Assembly: GCF_011682235.2 (NCBI RefSeq)
Contig: NZ_CP076718.1
Coordinates: 3,520,400-3,584,399 of the forward strand
Source: Rhodocaloribacter litoris
GTDB lineage: Bacteria > Bacteroidota > Rhodothermia > Rhodothermales > ISCAR-4553
DNA: 64,000 nucleotides
Direction of reading: 5' to 3'
Position 1 is the stretch's first letter. Each line of letters starts with the position of its first letter. The position numbers and the translations under genes were made by a program. The notes beneath the pieces were generated by a model. It saw nothing but the letters and a program-made list of their open reading frames with translations. It was not told the DNA's origin and made no database searches. Positions 23,520-30,247 of the stretch are shown here, in pieces.

Positions 23520-23629
23520 GCGCGGCGCGTTCGGGCACGCAGGCCACGAAGTCGCATCGGATTGCGGGTTGAAGATTGAAGGCGTTTGGACGCCATCCTC
23601 CAGACCTCCCCACCTTCCTCCGCACAATC

Positions 23630-24826
23630 GTGAACCCTGACCGTCATCACCCGCAGTGGCGCGACTGGCGCTGGCAGATGCAGCATCGCGTGCACGACGA
23701 GCCGACGCTGCGGCGCTACATCAACCCCGTGCCGGACGAACTGGCCGCCATCGAGGCGACCCGGGACGTCTTCCGGTGGAACATCACACCGTACTATGCC
23801 GCGCTCATGGACCCGGACGACCCGGATTGCCCCATCCGGCGGCAGATGGTGCCCCGCATGAACGAGCTGGCCCCGGACCTCGTCGGCGTCGTCGACCCGC
23901 TCGAAGAGGTGGCCCACTCCCCCGTGAAAAACCTCATCCACAACTATCCGGACCGGGTGGCCTTCTGCGTTACGGCCGAGTGTGCCATCTATTGCCGGTA
24001 CTGCCTGCGCAAGCGCATGGTGGGGGACGCCGAATACATGATGCGCCGGGCCGAGCACCGGGCCGCCATCGACTACATCGCCGCCCACCCCGAGATCCGG
24101 GACGTGCTCCTGACCGGCGGCGACCCGCTGACCTTCAACGACGCCCACCTGGACGAGCTGCTGGGGGCGCTCCGGGCCATCCCACACGTCGAGATTTTAC
24201 GGCTGGGTACCCGGCTGCCGGTGACACTGCCCTATCGCATCACCCCCGCGCTCTGCGCCGTGCTCGAGAAGTACCATCCGGTGTGGGTGAACACGCATTT
24301 CAACCACCCGAAGGAACTCACGGACGATGCGGCCGAGGCCGTCGACCGGCTGCTCCGGGCCGGTGTCCCCGTCGGCAATCAGACGGTGCTCCTGCGCGGC
24401 ATCAACGACGACGTGACCACGATGAAGGCCCTGTGTGAGGGGCTCGTCCGGATGCGGGTGCGGCCCTACTACCTCTACCAGGCCCAGCTCATCGGCGGGA
24501 CGGCCCATTTCCGCACCTCCATCGAGCGGGGCATGGCCCTCATGGAAGCGCTGCAGGGCCGGACGACCGGCTTTGCCATCCCGAAGTACGTGCTCGATAC
24601 GCCCTTTGGCAAGGTCCCGCTCAACCGGTCGTACGTGCTCGGGCGAGCCGGCGACCACGTGCTGATGCGCACGCCGCGCGGGCCGCTGTGGGCCGAGCCC
24701 AACCCCCTCCCGCCGGGTGAGGCACCGGGGCTCACGTTGCCGGCCGTCCGCCTTCCGGAGAACGTTGCCACGATAGTCACCGGGGTCCCGCGGCGGGAGG
24801 AACCCCTGCTGCACCGGCAGGGGTGA
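23630..24826 (+). CDS. KamA-family radical SAM aminomutase, divergent
   Basis: This 398-residue radical SAM/PLP enzyme resembles lysine 2,3-aminomutase. The iron-sulfur cysteines are C118, C122 and C125 (ECAIYCRYCLRKR), followed by LLTGGDPL. PLP lysine K328 lies in LDTPFGKVP, a loop two residues shorter than the usual PGGGGK. In lysine aminomutase Asp293 and Asp330 hold the substrate epsilon-amine. Here D323 matches the second, but Q286 (YQAQLIGG) replaces the first. Substrate may therefore differ from lysine. The GTG at 23630 gives a compact N-terminus ending in WRDWRWQMQHR. A TTG start at 23576 would add 18 residues. It follows the Ddl-like ligase and may form a two-gene pathway with it. 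Confidence 0.85.
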   Translation: MNPDRHHPQWRDWRWQMQHRVHDEPTLRRYINPVPDELAAIEATRDVFRWNITPYYAALMDPDDPDCPIRRQMVPRMNELAPDLVGVVDPLEEVAHSPVKNLIHNYPDRVAFCVTAECAIYCRYCLRKRMVGDAEYMMRRAEHRAAIDYIAAHPEIRDVLLTGGDPLTFNDAHLDELLGALRAIPHVEILRLGTRLPVTLPYRITPALCAVLEKYHPVWVNTHFNHPKELTDDAAEAVDRLLRAGVPVGNQTVLLRGINDDVTTMKALCEGLVRMRVRPYYLYQAQLIGGTAHFRTSIERGMALMEALQGRTTGFAIPKYVLDTPFGKVPLNRSYVLGRAGDHVLMRTPRGPLWAEPNPLPPGEAPGLTLPAVRLPENVATIVTGVPRREEPLLHRQG

Positions 24827-24987: not shown

Positions 24988-26385
24988 ATGATTCGTATCC
25001 TTATGTTCATCCTGGCCATTGTGGCTGTCGTTCTTGCCGTCGTGTTGAAGGAGCCGTTGCTGTTTGTGATTGCCGGGGGGCTGGTGCTGGGGGCACTCCT
25101 GGCCTTCGTGGCGCTGCTGCGTCGTCGTCATCGCCGGATGAAGGTGCAGTATGCGCCACCGGCCCGGGAGGGGGACGACGAGCTCAAGGCGCTCGGAATT
25201 CTGGAGATCCGGCCCAAGGCGTCGGAGGCGCGCCCGGGGCCGCACCTGCAGCAGGAAGCCGGGGTGCCGGATGTGATGCCCGCGGCCACGCCGGAACACG
25301 CCGGGATGCCCGGAGCCCGGGGCGGCGAGCCTCCGGAGCAGGAGCGAGCCGCGGAAGCCGTGCCCGGGACGGGCGGGACGCCGGCGACGGACGACCGTGG
25401 CATCGAGGCCGAAGCGGAGGAGGACATGGTGATCGAGGTGCGCAAGAAGGATCCCGAACGCTACGTGGCCGTGGAGGCGGCGGCGGACGGGTACGAGGAA
25501 GACGTGCTGTTGCCCGTGCTCCATGCCCTCCGGTCGGCGCTGAAGGCCACCACGGTCTGCCTGCTTCGGCAGGAGGAAATCGCCCTCCGCTACCATATCG
25601 TCGCGATCGTCAGCCGGAACGGCTATGCCCGCGGTCCCGGCAGCTTCTCGACACGCATCCCGCTGCTGCCTGCGGGCGAGGCCCCGGTGTGGGTACGCCG
25701 GGTGCACGAGAGTGACCTGCCGGCCAAGAGCCTCGGGTACTACCGCGAGCCCATCGCCGTGCGGCGTGTGGCCGTGGCTCCCGTGCAGGGCGGCGCCACG
25801 GGACACGTCACGCGCCCGAACGCCTTCTTTCTCCTGGCCGACGCCATGGACGAGCGCGTCTTCGAGACGCCCCGCGCACAGGCCCTGTTGCTCCGGAGTG
25901 CCGACTTGCTCGGCGTCCTCCTCGACGGCCGCCTGCCGCCGTCGGTTCCGGCCTCGGCGCCGCGCCCGCGTCGCGAGATCATCGCCGAGGAGATGGCACA
26001 GGCCCGTATGCGCCGGCACCCGCTGGTGCTGGCCCTGGTTTATCTCGAAGGCGGTGAGCGCCTCCGGGCGGCCTCCGAAGGCGACATCGAACAGGCCGAA
26101 GTCGCCCTGAAGGGGCAGCTGCACGAGGCCGTCCCCACCGCACGCATCGAGCGCTTCGGCGAGCTGATGTACGGCGTCTTCTACCGTGAACCCCTCGACG
26201 ACGTCGAATCCTGGGCCCTCGGCCTCCAGGAACGGCTCGATGCCGCCGGCTTCGACGGCAAGGTCTACGTGGGCGTGGCCCTCCTCCAGGAACGCCACCG
26301 GACGCCGGACGACTTCAAGGCGGAGGCAACCGCCGCGCTCTACGAGGCCTACGAGACGGGCACGTGTACCATCATCGAATCTTGA
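24988..26385 (+). CDS. Membrane protein with GAF-like and degenerate GGDEF domains
   Basis: This 465-residue protein has two N-terminal membrane helices (about 3-20 and 25-45) with a basic RRRHRRMK stop, a variable acidic linker (to about 150), a GAF-like region (about 165-310) and a C-terminal domain resembling GGDEF. In that last part the strand before the turn is intact in pattern (LVLALVYLE), but the GGDEF loop reads RFGELMYGVFY from R389, with no catalytic GG(D/E)EF. VYVGVALLQERHRTPDDF and AALYEAYETG match the closing strand-helix of a diguanylate cyclase. It may sense or bind a nucleotide without making it. It heads a likely operon with two microcompartment vertex proteins 61 bases downstream. 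Confidence 0.7.
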   Translation: MIRILMFILAIVAVVLAVVLKEPLLFVIAGGLVLGALLAFVALLRRRHRRMKVQYAPPAREGDDELKALGILEIRPKASEARPGPHLQQEAGVPDVMPAATPEHAGMPGARGGEPPEQERAAEAVPGTGGTPATDDRGIEAEAEEDMVIEVRKKDPERYVAVEAAADGYEEDVLLPVLHALRSALKATTVCLLRQEEIALRYHIVAIVSRNGYARGPGSFSTRIPLLPAGEAPVWVRRVHESDLPAKSLGYYREPIAVRRVAVAPVQGGATGHVTRPNAFFLLADAMDERVFETPRAQALLLRSADLLGVLLDGRLPPSVPASAPRPRREIIAEEMAQARMRRHPLVLALVYLEGGERLRAASEGDIEQAEVALKGQLHEAVPTARIERFGELMYGVFYREPLDDVESWALGLQERLDAAGFDGKVYVGVALLQERHRTPDDFKAEATAALYEAYETGTCTIIES

Positions 26386-26446
26386 AGACGCCGCCCGTCG
26401 TTCTCTTCCGGCATCCGCTACCCGCTGCCTATCATCCGGCCGAATC

Positions 26447-26749
26447 ATGACGCTCGGAAAAGTTGTCGGTACCGTCTGGGCCACCCGCAAGGACGAACAG
26501 CTCGTCGGCATGAAGCTGCAGATCGTGCAGGAGGTCGATCTGGACTACACGCTCAAGGACAGCTTCGTCGTCGCCGTGGACAGCGTCGGGGCCGGCGTGG
26601 GGGAGATCGTGCTGTTCGCCACCGGGTCGAGCGCCCGTCAGACCGAGCTGACCCGCAACAAGCCCGTCGACGCCGTCATCACAGCCATCGTGGACAAGCT
26701 CGACGTGCCCGCGACCGCCGGGGTGACCGAAGCCGAACCCGTCGCATGA
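26447..26749 (+). CDS. EutN/CcmL-family microcompartment vertex protein 1
   Basis: This 100-residue protein belongs to the BMC-P family, which forms pentamers capping the corners of bacterial microcompartments. The start GKVVGTVWATRKDEQLVGMK, then VDSVGAGVGEIVLFATGSSAR, and VDAVITAIVDKLDV match the family along their full length, with the canonical GAG and GSSAR motifs. The stop overlaps the next start as ATGA, so both pentamer proteins are made together. No hexameric (BMC-H or BMC-T) shell gene and no encapsulated enzyme cluster is seen in the window. Confidence 0.9.
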   Translation: MTLGKVVGTVWATRKDEQLVGMKLQIVQEVDLDYTLKDSFVVAVDSVGAGVGEIVLFATGSSARQTELTRNKPVDAVITAIVDKLDVPATAGVTEAEPVA

Positions 26750-27063
26750 ACCTCGCCCGCGTCATCGGTACCGTCTGGGCCACCCGCAAGTATCCCACCC
26801 TCGAAGGGCGGCGCCTGCTCTTTGCCCAGCCCCTGACCTTCGGCGGCGACGCGCTCGGCGACCCGATCGTCATGCTGGACACGGCCGACGCCGGGGTGGG
26901 CGACGTGGTCCTCTACGTCACCTCCAGCGAGGCCGCCATCCCCTTTCACCCGAACCTGACCCCTACGGATGCGACCATCGTCGGGGTGGTCGAACGCATC
27001 GACCGCCTGGATACGACGTGGCACACCCTGCCCGGAGCGGGCACCGACACGGGGCCGGAATGA
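26746..27063 (+). CDS. EutN/CcmL-family microcompartment vertex protein 2
   Basis: This 105-residue second BMC-P protein starts inside the stop of the first (ATGA). It keeps the family opening LARVIGTVWATRKYPTLEGR and LLFAQPL, and the middle strand LDTADAGVGDVVLYVTSSEA. The usual GSSAR loop has diverged to TSSEA, and the tail (DTTWHTLPGAGTD) is different. Two paralogous vertex proteins could form hetero-pentamers or serve two sites. The gene converges on ppc with a 180-base gap that holds no clear terminator. Confidence 0.88.
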   Translation: MNLARVIGTVWATRKYPTLEGRRLLFAQPLTFGGDALGDPIVMLDTADAGVGDVVLYVTSSEAAIPFHPNLTPTDATIVGVVERIDRLDTTWHTLPGAGTDTGPE

Positions 27064-27243: not shown

Positions 27244-30084
27244 TCAGCCGGTGCTTTGCATGGCGGCGGCGATGCCGTTGATGCTCAGGAAGAGGGCCTG
27301 CCGGAGTGCCTCACGTTCTGCGGGGCGGGCGGCCCGCTCACGCTTCATCAGTTCGATCTGCAACAGGTTGAGCACGTCCGTATACGGGTTGCGCAGGACG
27401 ATGGACTGCTGCACGGCGCGGCTGATGTCGAGCAGTTCCGCCTGGCCGGTGATCTGGAGCACGGCCGTGCGGGCACGGTGGAAGTCGGTGGCGATGATGT
27501 CGTGGAAGGGTTTGTGGATGTCGTCGGCCAGGCGGGCGTAGTGGCGGGCGATCTCCAGGCGGGCCCGGGCCATCTCCAGCTGGGCGTTGTCGATGACGGC
27601 GCGGAAGAAGGGCCATTCCCGGTACATGCGGCGGAGGATGTCGAGGGGGGCGCTTCCGGCGTCGAGGGCTTCGGCCAGGGCACGTCCCAGGCCATACCAT
27701 CCGGGGACGATGTAGCGCGTCTGCGTCCAGGCGAAGACCCAGGGGATGGCGCGCAGTCCCTCGAAGTCGACCTCGTCGGCGGATTTGCGGGAGACGGGCC
27801 GGGAGGCGATGGGCAGGCGGCTGATCTGGGCGATGGGGGTGATGCGGGTGTACCAGGTCCAGAGCTGTTCGTCGTGGATGAGGTCGCGGTAGGCCTGCAT
27901 GGCGCGGTCGGCCAGTTCTTCCATGAGCCGTGCTTCCGGGGCGTCGGAGGTGACGCGGGAAGCCGGGCGTCGGGTGTCTTCCGCCGTGGCCGGTGCTTCC
28001 CGCGGCCCGCCGGGGACCGTGGCCAGCAGCATCGCGTTGACGATCTGCTCCAGGTGGCGATGGGCGATCTCGGGGAGGGCGTAGCGGAAGGAGATGACCT
28101 CGCCCTGCTCCGTGAAGCGGATGCGGCCGTTGTGCGAGACGGGGGGCATGGCCAGGATGGCCCGGTTGGCCCGCCCGCCACCCCGCCCGACGGTGCCGCC
28201 GCGCCCGTGGAAGAGCCGGAAGTCGACCCCGTAATCCCGGCAGACGCGTCCCAGGCGTTCCTGCGCCTTGTGCAGTGCCCAGTTGGCCATCCAGAAGCCG
28301 CCGTCCTTGTTCGAGTCCGAGTAGCCGAGCATGATCTCCTGGAAGTGACCGCGGGCGGCCAGGTGCTTCCGGTAGACGGGATGCTCGAAGAGGGTTTCCA
28401 TGAACAGGTGGGCCGTCTCCAGGTCTTCGATGGTTTCGAAGAGGGGGACGATGTCGAGCGGGCAGGTGACGGTGTCGCCTTCCAGACGCCAGAGGCCGAC
28501 CTCTTTGGCCAGGAGCATGACCTCCAGCAGGTCGCTCACGGCGTGGGTCATGCTGACGATGAGGCTGCCGAGGGCGGCCGGTTCCTGCGCGGCCATCTCG
28601 CGGGCGACCTCGAACGTTTCGATGACCATCCGGGCCGTTTCGGGCAGGGGGGCGCCGTGGGGGCGCAGGGGACGGGGGTTGTGCAGTTCCCGGGTGAGCA
28701 GTTCGAGCCGCTCCGCCTCGGTGAGGGCGGCGTAGTCCCCGGTCACGCCGGCGATGCGGAGCAGGGCCGCCACCGCTTCCTCGTGCACCCGGCTGTGCTG
28801 CCGGATGTCGAGGGCGGCCATGTGGAAGCCGAAGGTGCGGGTTCGGGCCAGCAACCGGCCGAGCTGGCCGTCCCGCGCCAGTTCGCCGAAGCCGGTGGCT
28901 TCGAGACAGCGCCGGAGCAGCAGCAGGTCCTGGAGATAGCGGGTGCTGTCGTAGACGGGCGGGGCCGGTGTTTCCTCGCCGGTGCGTGCGGCCTCGAGCA
29001 GGGTCGCCACCCGTGTCATCATGTAGCTGATTTTGAGGCGGTACGGCTCGTACTGAAACTGCCGTGCCCAGGCCGGGTCGAGCGTGATCTCGGCGGCGTC
29101 TTCGGCGAGTGAGGCGGTCAGGGCCTCGGGGATGCGGATCTGTCGCTCGGAAAGGCTGAGCTCGCGGCGCAGGTGGCGCAGCGCCTCGTAGTGGAGCCGG
29201 AGCGCCACCTGTCGCAGCCGCCGGACGGTCCATCGCGTCACCTCGGGCGTGACGTTCGGGTTGCCGTCCCGGTCGCTGCCGATCCAGGAGCGGAAGCGGA
29301 GGAAGGCGGGTAGCTCGGGGGTGATACCGTAGTACTGTTCGAAGGCCCGGCGCACGTCGGCATAGATCCGGGGCACCGTCTCCCAGATCGTGTTGCTCAG
29401 AAAGTAGAGGCCATGTTCCACCTCGTTCTCGACGCTGACGCGCTCGGCACGGACCTCGTCGGTAGCCAGCAGGAGGGCGATCTGGTTGTGGACGTCGAGG
29501 CGGGCCTGTTCGGCTTCGACGGGCGTCGTCTCGCACTGGCGGCGACGCTGCGTGAGCAGGGTGGCCAGGCTTTGCTGTTTGTACAGGATGCTCCGGCGCC
29601 GCGCCTCGGTGGGATGGGCCGTCATCGTGGGCTGGATGTCGAGGCGGCCGAGTACCGCCAGCGCCTCCTCCGCCGGGAGGCCCCGCGTGCGAAGATGGAA
29701 GAGGGCCTCGTCGATGGCGTCGGCACGGGGGTGTTCCGGGGTGGCCTGCCGTGCCCGTTCCCGGTTGATGCGGATGATTTCCTGCTGTTCGGCCTGGTTG
29801 AGCAGGTGAAAGAAGGCGGTGTAGGAACGCAGGAGCTCGACGATCCGGTCCAGGTCCAGGGCGGCAATGCGGGCCTCGGCCTCGGCACGGGGGGCCGGGT
29901 CGTCCTCGTTCGTGGCACGGCGGCACAGGCGGTGCAGCACCTCGATGTCGTCGAGCAATGCCGGGCCGTACTGGTTTTCGACGGCCTGCCCGAGCTCGGT
30001 GCCGAGCAGGTCCACCACTTCGTGCAGGGACTCGGAGATCCAGACGACGCCGTCATCCGGACGCCAGGGATTCGGTGCAGGCAT
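27244..30084 (-). CDS. ppc: Phosphoenolpyruvate carboxylase
   Basis: This 946-residue enzyme carboxylates phosphoenolpyruvate with bicarbonate to oxaloacetate, refilling the TCA cycle. Catalytic landmarks are present: the histidine in MTAHPTEARRR, the lysine in GYSDSNKDGGF and the glycine/arginine loop HGRGGTVGRGGG. It ends in QSTG, near the usual C-terminal QNTG. The length is typical of the bacterial enzyme. The ATG at 30084 (MPAPNPWRPDDG) is chosen. A longer frame begins at 30168 without support. A TAGATTTT promoter-like octamer lies 34 bases upstream. It converges on the EutN gene pair. Coupling of carboxylation to a compartment is not shown. Confidence 0.96.
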   Translation of the reverse strand: MPAPNPWRPDDGVVWISESLHEVVDLLGTELGQAVENQYGPALLDDIEVLHRLCRRATNEDDPAPRAEAEARIAALDLDRIVELLRSYTAFFHLLNQAEQQEIIRINRERARQATPEHPRADAIDEALFHLRTRGLPAEEALAVLGRLDIQPTMTAHPTEARRRSILYKQQSLATLLTQRRRQCETTPVEAEQARLDVHNQIALLLATDEVRAERVSVENEVEHGLYFLSNTIWETVPRIYADVRRAFEQYYGITPELPAFLRFRSWIGSDRDGNPNVTPEVTRWTVRRLRQVALRLHYEALRHLRRELSLSERQIRIPEALTASLAEDAAEITLDPAWARQFQYEPYRLKISYMMTRVATLLEAARTGEETPAPPVYDSTRYLQDLLLLRRCLEATGFGELARDGQLGRLLARTRTFGFHMAALDIRQHSRVHEEAVAALLRIAGVTGDYAALTEAERLELLTRELHNPRPLRPHGAPLPETARMVIETFEVAREMAAQEPAALGSLIVSMTHAVSDLLEVMLLAKEVGLWRLEGDTVTCPLDIVPLFETIEDLETAHLFMETLFEHPVYRKHLAARGHFQEIMLGYSDSNKDGGFWMANWALHKAQERLGRVCRDYGVDFRLFHGRGGTVGRGGGRANRAILAMPPVSHNGRIRFTEQGEVISFRYALPEIAHRHLEQIVNAMLLATVPGGPREAPATAEDTRRPASRVTSDAPEARLMEELADRAMQAYRDLIHDEQLWTWYTRITPIAQISRLPIASRPVSRKSADEVDFEGLRAIPWVFAWTQTRYIVPGWYGLGRALAEALDAGSAPLDILRRMYREWPFFRAVIDNAQLEMARARLEIARHYARLADDIHKPFHDIIATDFHRARTAVLQITGQAELLDISRAVQQSIVLRNPYTDVLNLLQIELMKRERAARPAEREALRQALFLSINGIAAAMQSTG

Positions 30085-30247
30085 GGGAGCGTTGCGGGAC
30101 TGAGGGGTGAAAAAAGGAAAATCTACAATCGTGCGGGAAAATACCAGTCCGATGGGCCGGGGGGGCATGCACCGGGGCGGGGTGTTGCACGGTGAGGCAG
30201 GCCGTGCGTGTGCGGGCCGGCACCCGCGTGCCTGTGGCCGGGGGCGG

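What the first reader, a model, noticed from the sequence alone, without database searches (positions are those of the whole stretch)
24988..27063. Operon of two EutN/CcmL vertex proteins with no shell hexamer
Two BMC-P pentamer genes overlap by ATGA and lie just downstream of a membrane GAF/degenerate-GGDEF protein. Their family motifs (GTVWATRK, VGAGVGE, GSSAR) are clear. No BMC-H, BMC-T, aldehyde dehydrogenase or signature enzyme is in the 64-kb window. Pentamers usually cap a compartment, so two pentamers with a signalling-type membrane protein suggest a use outside a classical microcompartment, or a satellite locus.
Basis: partly seen in the sequence, partly recalled or inferred. Interest (0 to 1): 0.8.

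Follow-up and report, generated by a model that had tools for sequence, protein, structure and literature searches.

The report
Microcompartment genes scattered across one genome
The two vertex-protein genes are real, but they are one piece of a bacterial protein organelle whose shell and enzyme genes are scattered over six places in the genome, and the enzymes' targeting tags suggest that this poorly understood kind of organelle breaks down deoxyribose phosphate, a product of DNA degradation.

Summary
In detail: two EutN/CcmL (BMC-P) genes overlap by ATGA, next to a membrane GAF/degenerate-GGDEF gene. The inference of pentamers without a shell fails. The same 4.50-Mb contig carries a tandem BMC-H pair 780 kb away and a third BMC-P elsewhere; no locus holds both shell types. 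In 60 genomes of the order (Rhodothermales), the set of three BMC-P and two BMC-H is essentially all-or-none.

The likely cargo is three unlinked enzymes that follow the shell across genomes and bear targeting extensions: DeoC with an N-terminal encapsulation-peptide-like helix (22 of 25 clear), acetylating acetaldehyde dehydrogenase with two C-terminal helices (24 of 26 genomes), and RpiB with a module homologous to the shell-binding N-terminus of EutQ (26 of 26). None of the 34 shell-less genomes has this ALDH; no tagged RpiB was seen there; one keeps a tagged DeoC. DeoC, RpiB and ALDH are the SPU (DNA-sugar) enzyme set; the scattering matches FRAG BMCs, published as of unknown function. In other families of the phylum the block is GAF-GGDEF, DeoB, P1, P2, RpoD.

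Verdict: a FRAG-organised, SPU-type metabolosome, a new variant of a known kind with a testable function. The membrane protein is a conserved neighbour present in 33 of 34 shell-less genomes.

The parts
26447..26749 (+). BMC-P1, EutN/CcmL vertex protein, 100 aa
   Evidence: PF03319 89.5 bits; best PDB match is the H. ochraceum BMC-P, 5v74, E 2e-25; one clade of 21 orthologues, support 96/98
26746..27063 (+). BMC-P2, EutN/CcmL vertex protein, 105 aa, overlapping P1 by ATGA
   Evidence: PF03319 84.6 bits; 5v74 E 4e-13; separate clade, support 99/99
24988..26385 (+). Membrane GAF / degenerate-GGDEF protein, 465 aa; conserved neighbour of the pentamer pair, not shell-specific
   Evidence: GGDEF-like fold, profile match to GAF-GGDEF proteins, synteny, present in 59 of 60 genomes including shell-less ones

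Best explanation
The pair is part of a bacterial microcompartment (metabolosome) whose genes are dispersed over at least six loci of one chromosome: BMC-P1/P2 (window), BMC-P3, BMC-H1/H2, DeoC, acetylating acetaldehyde dehydrogenase (ALDH) and RpiB. The hexamers form the facets and the three pentamers the vertices. [quoted passage not shown] ALDH, with two C-terminal encapsulation-peptide-like helices, turns acetaldehyde into acetyl-CoA inside the shell. RpiB is tied to the shell by an N-terminal module homologous to the shell-binding half of EutQ. The purpose would be to use DNA or nucleoside sugars while containing acetaldehyde. Shown: gene identities, dispersion, co-occurrence, conserved extensions, synteny. 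Inferred: assembly of the shell, encapsulation, and the substrate.
For: Own genome: exactly three BMC-P and two BMC-H in three loci. Of 60 genomes of the order, 26 have BMC-P (25 with exactly 3), 25 of those have exactly 2 BMC-H, and 34 have neither. DeoC: N-terminal extension of 54 to about 80 residues in 25 of 25 BMC+ sequences read, clear leader helix in 22; no such leader in the BMC- DeoC read, except G020. ALDH: 24 of 26 BMC+, none of 34 BMC- (the one 42% hit is an AdhE-like 925-aa frame); two tail helices in all 23 readable tails. RpiB: long form with N-module in 26 of 26 BMC+, none or a short form in BMC-; the module matches E. coli EutQ residues 2-63 at E 3.7e-8 against about 2,000 decoys, the region shown in Salmonella to bind shell (PMC12487888). 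Outside the order DeoB lies just upstream of P1-P2 in 10 of 17 dispersed loci, and one also has a leader-bearing DeoC 4 kb away. An acidobacterial ALDH between two BMC-H genes ends in a helix-like stretch plus a module of the same kind, with DeoB about 5 kb away. The three enzymes are the published SPU set (PMC4207490, PMC8217296).
Against: No particle has been seen. The own genome and its family lack canonical DeoB, so the source of deoxyribose-5-phosphate is unsettled there. No PF06130 phosphotransacylase in any of the 60 genomes and no BMC-T, so CoA recycling is unexplained. The leader helices score only modestly for amphipathicity and cross-detection is weak. G043 and G050 have no clear DeoC leader, G059 a weak one. 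The shell-bearing genomes are clustered on a proxy tree (about 4 changes, at least 2 forced), so co-occurrence counts overstate independence.
Confidence: 0.82

Rival explanations
1. Pentamers used outside any shell, in a complex with the membrane GAF-GGDEF protein.
For: Synteny of the membrane gene with P1-P2 is very deep, 17 of 17 dispersed loci outside the order. The pair is physically far from any hexamer gene.
Against: BMC-H genes exist in the same genome and co-vary with the pentamers. The membrane gene persists in 33 of 34 shell-less genomes. Enzymes with targeting tags co-vary with the shell.
Confidence: 0.05
2. A degenerating system: the scattered shell genes are remnants without function.
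For: Dispersion, absence of a main locus, loss of DeoB in the own family.
Against: Five shell genes and three tagged enzymes are kept intact across several families, and BMC-P1 keeps 64-84% identity in most dispersed loci of other families of the phylum; tags are conserved in sequence pattern.
Confidence: 0.05
3. A metabolosome with the same shell and cargo but a different main substrate, for example ribose/ribulose-phosphate or another aldol substrate of DeoC, with deoxyribose incidental.
For: No DeoB in the own family; RpiB is as constant as DeoC; a gene read as class I fructose-bisphosphate aldolase sits near BMC-P3 in 13 of 20 loci.
Against: DeoC scores 278 bits in the deoxyribose-phosphate aldolase equivalog, cut-off 117; ALDH is closest to acetylating acetaldehyde dehydrogenase; DeoB is syntenic with P1-P2 in most lineages.
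Confidence: 0.12

Closest known systems
FRAG BMCs (Sutter et al. 2021, PMC8217296)
   Same: Shell genes scattered over several loci, three BMC-P genes, mostly remote from enzyme genes; reported in Ignavibacteriae and relatives.
   Different: FRAG types are described with AldDh but no signature enzyme and unknown function; here DeoC and RpiB with targeting extensions are identified at unlinked loci. Rhodothermales are not named in the main text.
SPU (sugar phosphate utilization) BMCs (Axen 2014, PMC4207490; Sutter 2021)
   Same: The same three enzymes: DeoC-type aldolase, RpiB-type isomerase, acetaldehyde-type ALDH.
   Different: SPU genes form one main locus, and most of the first described loci have PduL; here everything is dispersed, with no PF06130 protein and no BMC-T.
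HO BMC (Haliangium ochraceum)
   Same: BMC-P triplet; some HO genomes have a remote DeoC-type enzyme with an EP-like N-terminal extension (PMC8217296); its solved pentamer is the closest to P1 and P2.
   Different: HO has a main locus with BMC-T proteins.
EutQ N-terminal module (Eut BMC; PMC12487888)
   Same: Homologous to the N-terminal module of RpiB (residues 2-63, E 3.7e-8).
   Different: Fused to RpiB rather than a cupin; the EP-binding helices H3/H4 of EutQ are essentially outside the matched region.

Membership tests
FRAG BMC | Shell genes in several separate loci, no defined locus organisation | tested here: met
   P1/P2 at 3.547 Mb, P3 at 4.269 Mb, H1/H2 at 4.329 Mb
FRAG BMC | BMC-P triplet | tested here: met
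   Three BMC-P in three well-supported orthologous clades; assignment to the published grey/orange clades not tested
FRAG BMC | Shell genes remote from known enzyme genes | tested here: met
   No DeoC, RpiB or ALDH gene near any of the three shell loci in the own genome
FRAG BMC | Shell sequence types that define FRAG1-7 | not testable with these tools
SPU BMC | DeoC-type aldolase (PF01791) | tested here: met
   TIGR00126 278 bits, N-terminal leader helix
SPU BMC | RpiB-type isomerase (PF02502) | tested here: met
   PF02502 173.6 bits, EutQ-type N-module in 26 of 26
SPU BMC | BMC-associated acetaldehyde-type AldDh | tested here: met
   Best model TIGR02518 552 bits (below its curated cut-off of 620), tail helices
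SPU BMC | Clustered main locus of shell and enzymes | tested here: not met
   Six separate loci; so not filed as SPU proper
SPU BMC | PduL phosphotransacylase (most of the first described loci) | tested here: not met
   PF06130 in 0 of 60 genomes
Satellite BMC locus | A main locus with both BMC-H and BMC-P elsewhere in the genome | tested here: not met
   BMC-H and BMC-P never together; 2 BMC-H and 3 BMC-P in all

The most novel reading that the evidence does not exclude
FRAG-type dispersed microcompartments of this phylum are, as a class, deoxyribose-5-phosphate metabolosomes, built from unlinked genes and assembled with an enzyme (RpiB) that carries the EutQ-type shell anchor itself, in place of a dedicated linker protein.
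Probability: 0.45. Interest if true: 0.75.

Novelty: new variant of a known kind. Interest (0 to 1): 0.62.

Why it matters
FRAG microcompartments were catalogued in 2021 with no function, because their shell genes do not sit with enzymes. Here unlinked enzymes are connected to such a shell by three different targeting extensions and by presence/absence across genomes, giving a concrete hypothesis: catabolism of DNA-derived deoxyribose. It also suggests a way to find cargo of other dispersed organelles, and it gives a lineage in which organelle genes stay together in evolution without an operon. The term 'FRAG BMC' occurs in only one paper of the searched library.

Tried and rejected
Pentamers without a shell: rejected by the whole-genome BMC-H search. 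Satellite to a conventional cluster: rejected, no main locus. Membrane protein as a dedicated BMC partner: weakened by its presence in 33 of 34 shell-less genomes. PEP carboxylase (27244-30168, convergent) as cargo: it was not found next to P1-P2 in relatives. PduL as phosphotransacylase: PF06130 absent everywhere in the order. Literature on microcompartments in Rhodothermus or Salinibacter: nothing relevant by title and abstract. Amphipathic-moment statistics for DeoC leaders: mostly not exceptional, so the case rests on conservation and shell-linked presence. The first attempts at extracting RpiB by frame or motif failed and were redone.

Full report
WHAT IS IN THE WINDOW. The two pentamer genes are real. 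The gene before them (24988-26385) has no family hit of its own, but its alignment of 27 homologues predicts two N-terminal helices and two globular domains (mean pLDDT 78.7). Foldseek matches are to diguanylate cyclases (E 1.8e-8), and hhalign joins it to 2TM-GAF-GAF-GGDEF proteins of other families (probability 94.7, E 6.4e-8). The GG[DE]EF signature is lost, so 'membrane GAF/degenerate GGDEF' was a correct reading.

WHAT IS IN THE GENOME. The window is part of a 4,502,320-base single contig. It holds exactly three PF03319 genes: the pair, and a lone BMC-P3 at 4,268,609-4,268,863. It holds exactly two PF00936 genes, a tandem BMC-H pair at about 4,328,812-4,329,504. No ALDH, DeoC or RpiB gene lies near any of them. 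So there is a hexamer, but neither a conventional cluster nor a main locus. The finding as titled is true of the window and misleading for the genome.

CO-OCCURRENCE. Among 60 genomes of the order, 26 have BMC-P (25 with exactly three; the other, G006, is 77% complete) and 25 of these have exactly two BMC-H (the exception, G050, is 72% complete); 34 have neither. Trees place P1, P2 and P3 in three separate, supported clades, a BMC-P triplet. On a proxy tree of one housekeeping aldolase, presence of the shell needs about four changes, at least two of them forced, so the pattern is more than one event but not 26 independent ones.

CARGO. Searching for the enzymes of known metabolosomes gave three that follow the shell. 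(i) DeoC, own copy near 4,020,335-4,021,189 (L166:7836-8690): in all 25 shell-bearing genomes read it has an N-terminal extension of 54 to about 80 residues, in 22 starting with a helix of the approximate pattern x-x-x-x-[EQ]-[KR]-x-x-[LI]-[IVL]-x-R-L. The DeoC of shell-less genomes read lacks it, except G020, which has a leader but no shell. (ii) An acetylating acetaldehyde dehydrogenase, own copy at 1,387,740-1,389,329: in 24 of 26 shell-bearing genomes and no shell-less one at this identity. All 23 readable C-terminal tails carry two conserved helices (in the own copy SWIDAIEARLRARAGNP, and LPDEQIENLIQRFKK at the very end). (iii) RpiB, own copy near 3,647,119: in 26 of 26 shell-bearing genomes it carries an N-terminal module of about 50 residues; shell-less genomes have no RpiB or a short one, and the four short ones read show no module match. 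That module is homologous to residues 2-63 of E. coli EutQ (E 3.7e-8 against 1,000 shuffles and 1,014 control proteins). In Salmonella, EutQ residues 9-41 bind the shell, 42-61 are a flexible link, and 62-99 bind encapsulation peptides (PMC12487888). RpiB therefore seems to carry the shell-binding half directly; this functional transfer is inference.

STRENGTH OF THE TAGS. A profile of the ALDH end helix, searched over about 2,050 protein termini, ranks a DeoC extension and the E. coli EutC N-terminus (EutC 1-20 is an EutQ-binding encapsulation peptide in PMC12487888) as its two best non-self hits, though neither is significant alone (E 0.07 and 0.27). The DeoC profile's best non-self hits are enriched in ALDH tails. 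Amphipathicity is modest for DeoC leaders and better for the ALDH end helix. The claim of encapsulation rests on conservation, position and shell-linked presence, not on helix statistics.

SYNTENY BEYOND THE ORDER. Of 296 genomes of the phylum, 55 have BMC-P, most with three, commonly a pair plus a lone copy. In 17 of 17 dispersed loci read outside the order the block is membrane GAF-GGDEF, then DeoB in 10 of 17, then P1, P2 and the sigma factor RpoD. DeoB makes deoxyribose-5-phosphate from deoxyribose-1-phosphate (established knowledge of the family). In G131 a DeoC with the leader MDKQTILHLIEQVLNETNAY is in the same block. In an acidobacterial record an ALDH between two BMC-H genes has a C-terminal helix-like stretch and a module of the EutQ type, and DeoB lies about 5 kb away (the module was read by eye). 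Inside the order, membrane gene and DeoB precede P1-P2 in most genomes; the own genome and its sister have lost DeoB.

THE MEMBRANE PROTEIN. The linkage is ancient, but the gene is in 59 of 60 genomes of the order, including 33 of 34 without a shell. It is best seen as a core gene that shares a gene block with DeoB and the pentamers. A regulatory link cannot be excluded.

COMPARISON WITH THE KNOWN. DeoC, RpiB and AldDh characterise SPU compartments, proposed for DNA sugar catabolism (PMC4207490, PMC8217296). Scattered shell genes with a BMC-P triplet characterise FRAG compartments, for which no signature enzyme or function was known (PMC8217296). This system has the organisation of FRAG and the enzymes of SPU. 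It is not filed as SPU proper, because the clustered main locus and PduL were tested and not met, and not as a satellite locus, because there is no main locus.

LIMITS. No physical evidence of particles exists. CoA and NAD recycling are unexplained: no PF06130 protein. The lack of DeoB in the own family is unexplained. The literature searched is open-access only.

Noticed in passing
L303, L294, L304, L292, L301, L293, L289, L297, L299 (next to RpiB in families f10 and f12): A gene of roughly 215-235 codons next to RpiB encodes a protein with no Pfam hit whose C-terminus is another EutQ-type module; the body may be a divergent PduL relative.
   Followed up: partly
G020 (L197; L230): A shell-less genome keeps a DeoC with an encapsulation-peptide-like leader but has no BMC-P, BMC-H or RpiB match, perhaps a relic of loss.
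   Followed up: partly
L006:16792-18780 and relatives: The BMC-H pair is followed by a gene weakly resembling YbbR in most relatives, and P1-P2 face a gene read as DacA in 15; a possible accidental link to c-di-AMP genes.
   Followed up: no
L008:9877-10164 and relatives: BMC-P3 lies beside a gene read as an AAA-type ATPase in 17 and near a class I fructose-bisphosphate aldolase gene in 13 of 20 relatives, but not in the own genome.
   Followed up: no
L338 and L354: Two genomes of the phylum have conventional clusters with BMC-H, BMC-P and a different ALDH; L338 also has class II aldolase-like and acetate kinase-like genes.
   Followed up: no
window 23576-24826 and 27244-30168: Lysine-2,3-aminomutase-like and PEP carboxylase genes flank the block; the former is found in the locus in 6 of 21 genomes, the latter only in the own genome.
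   Followed up: partly
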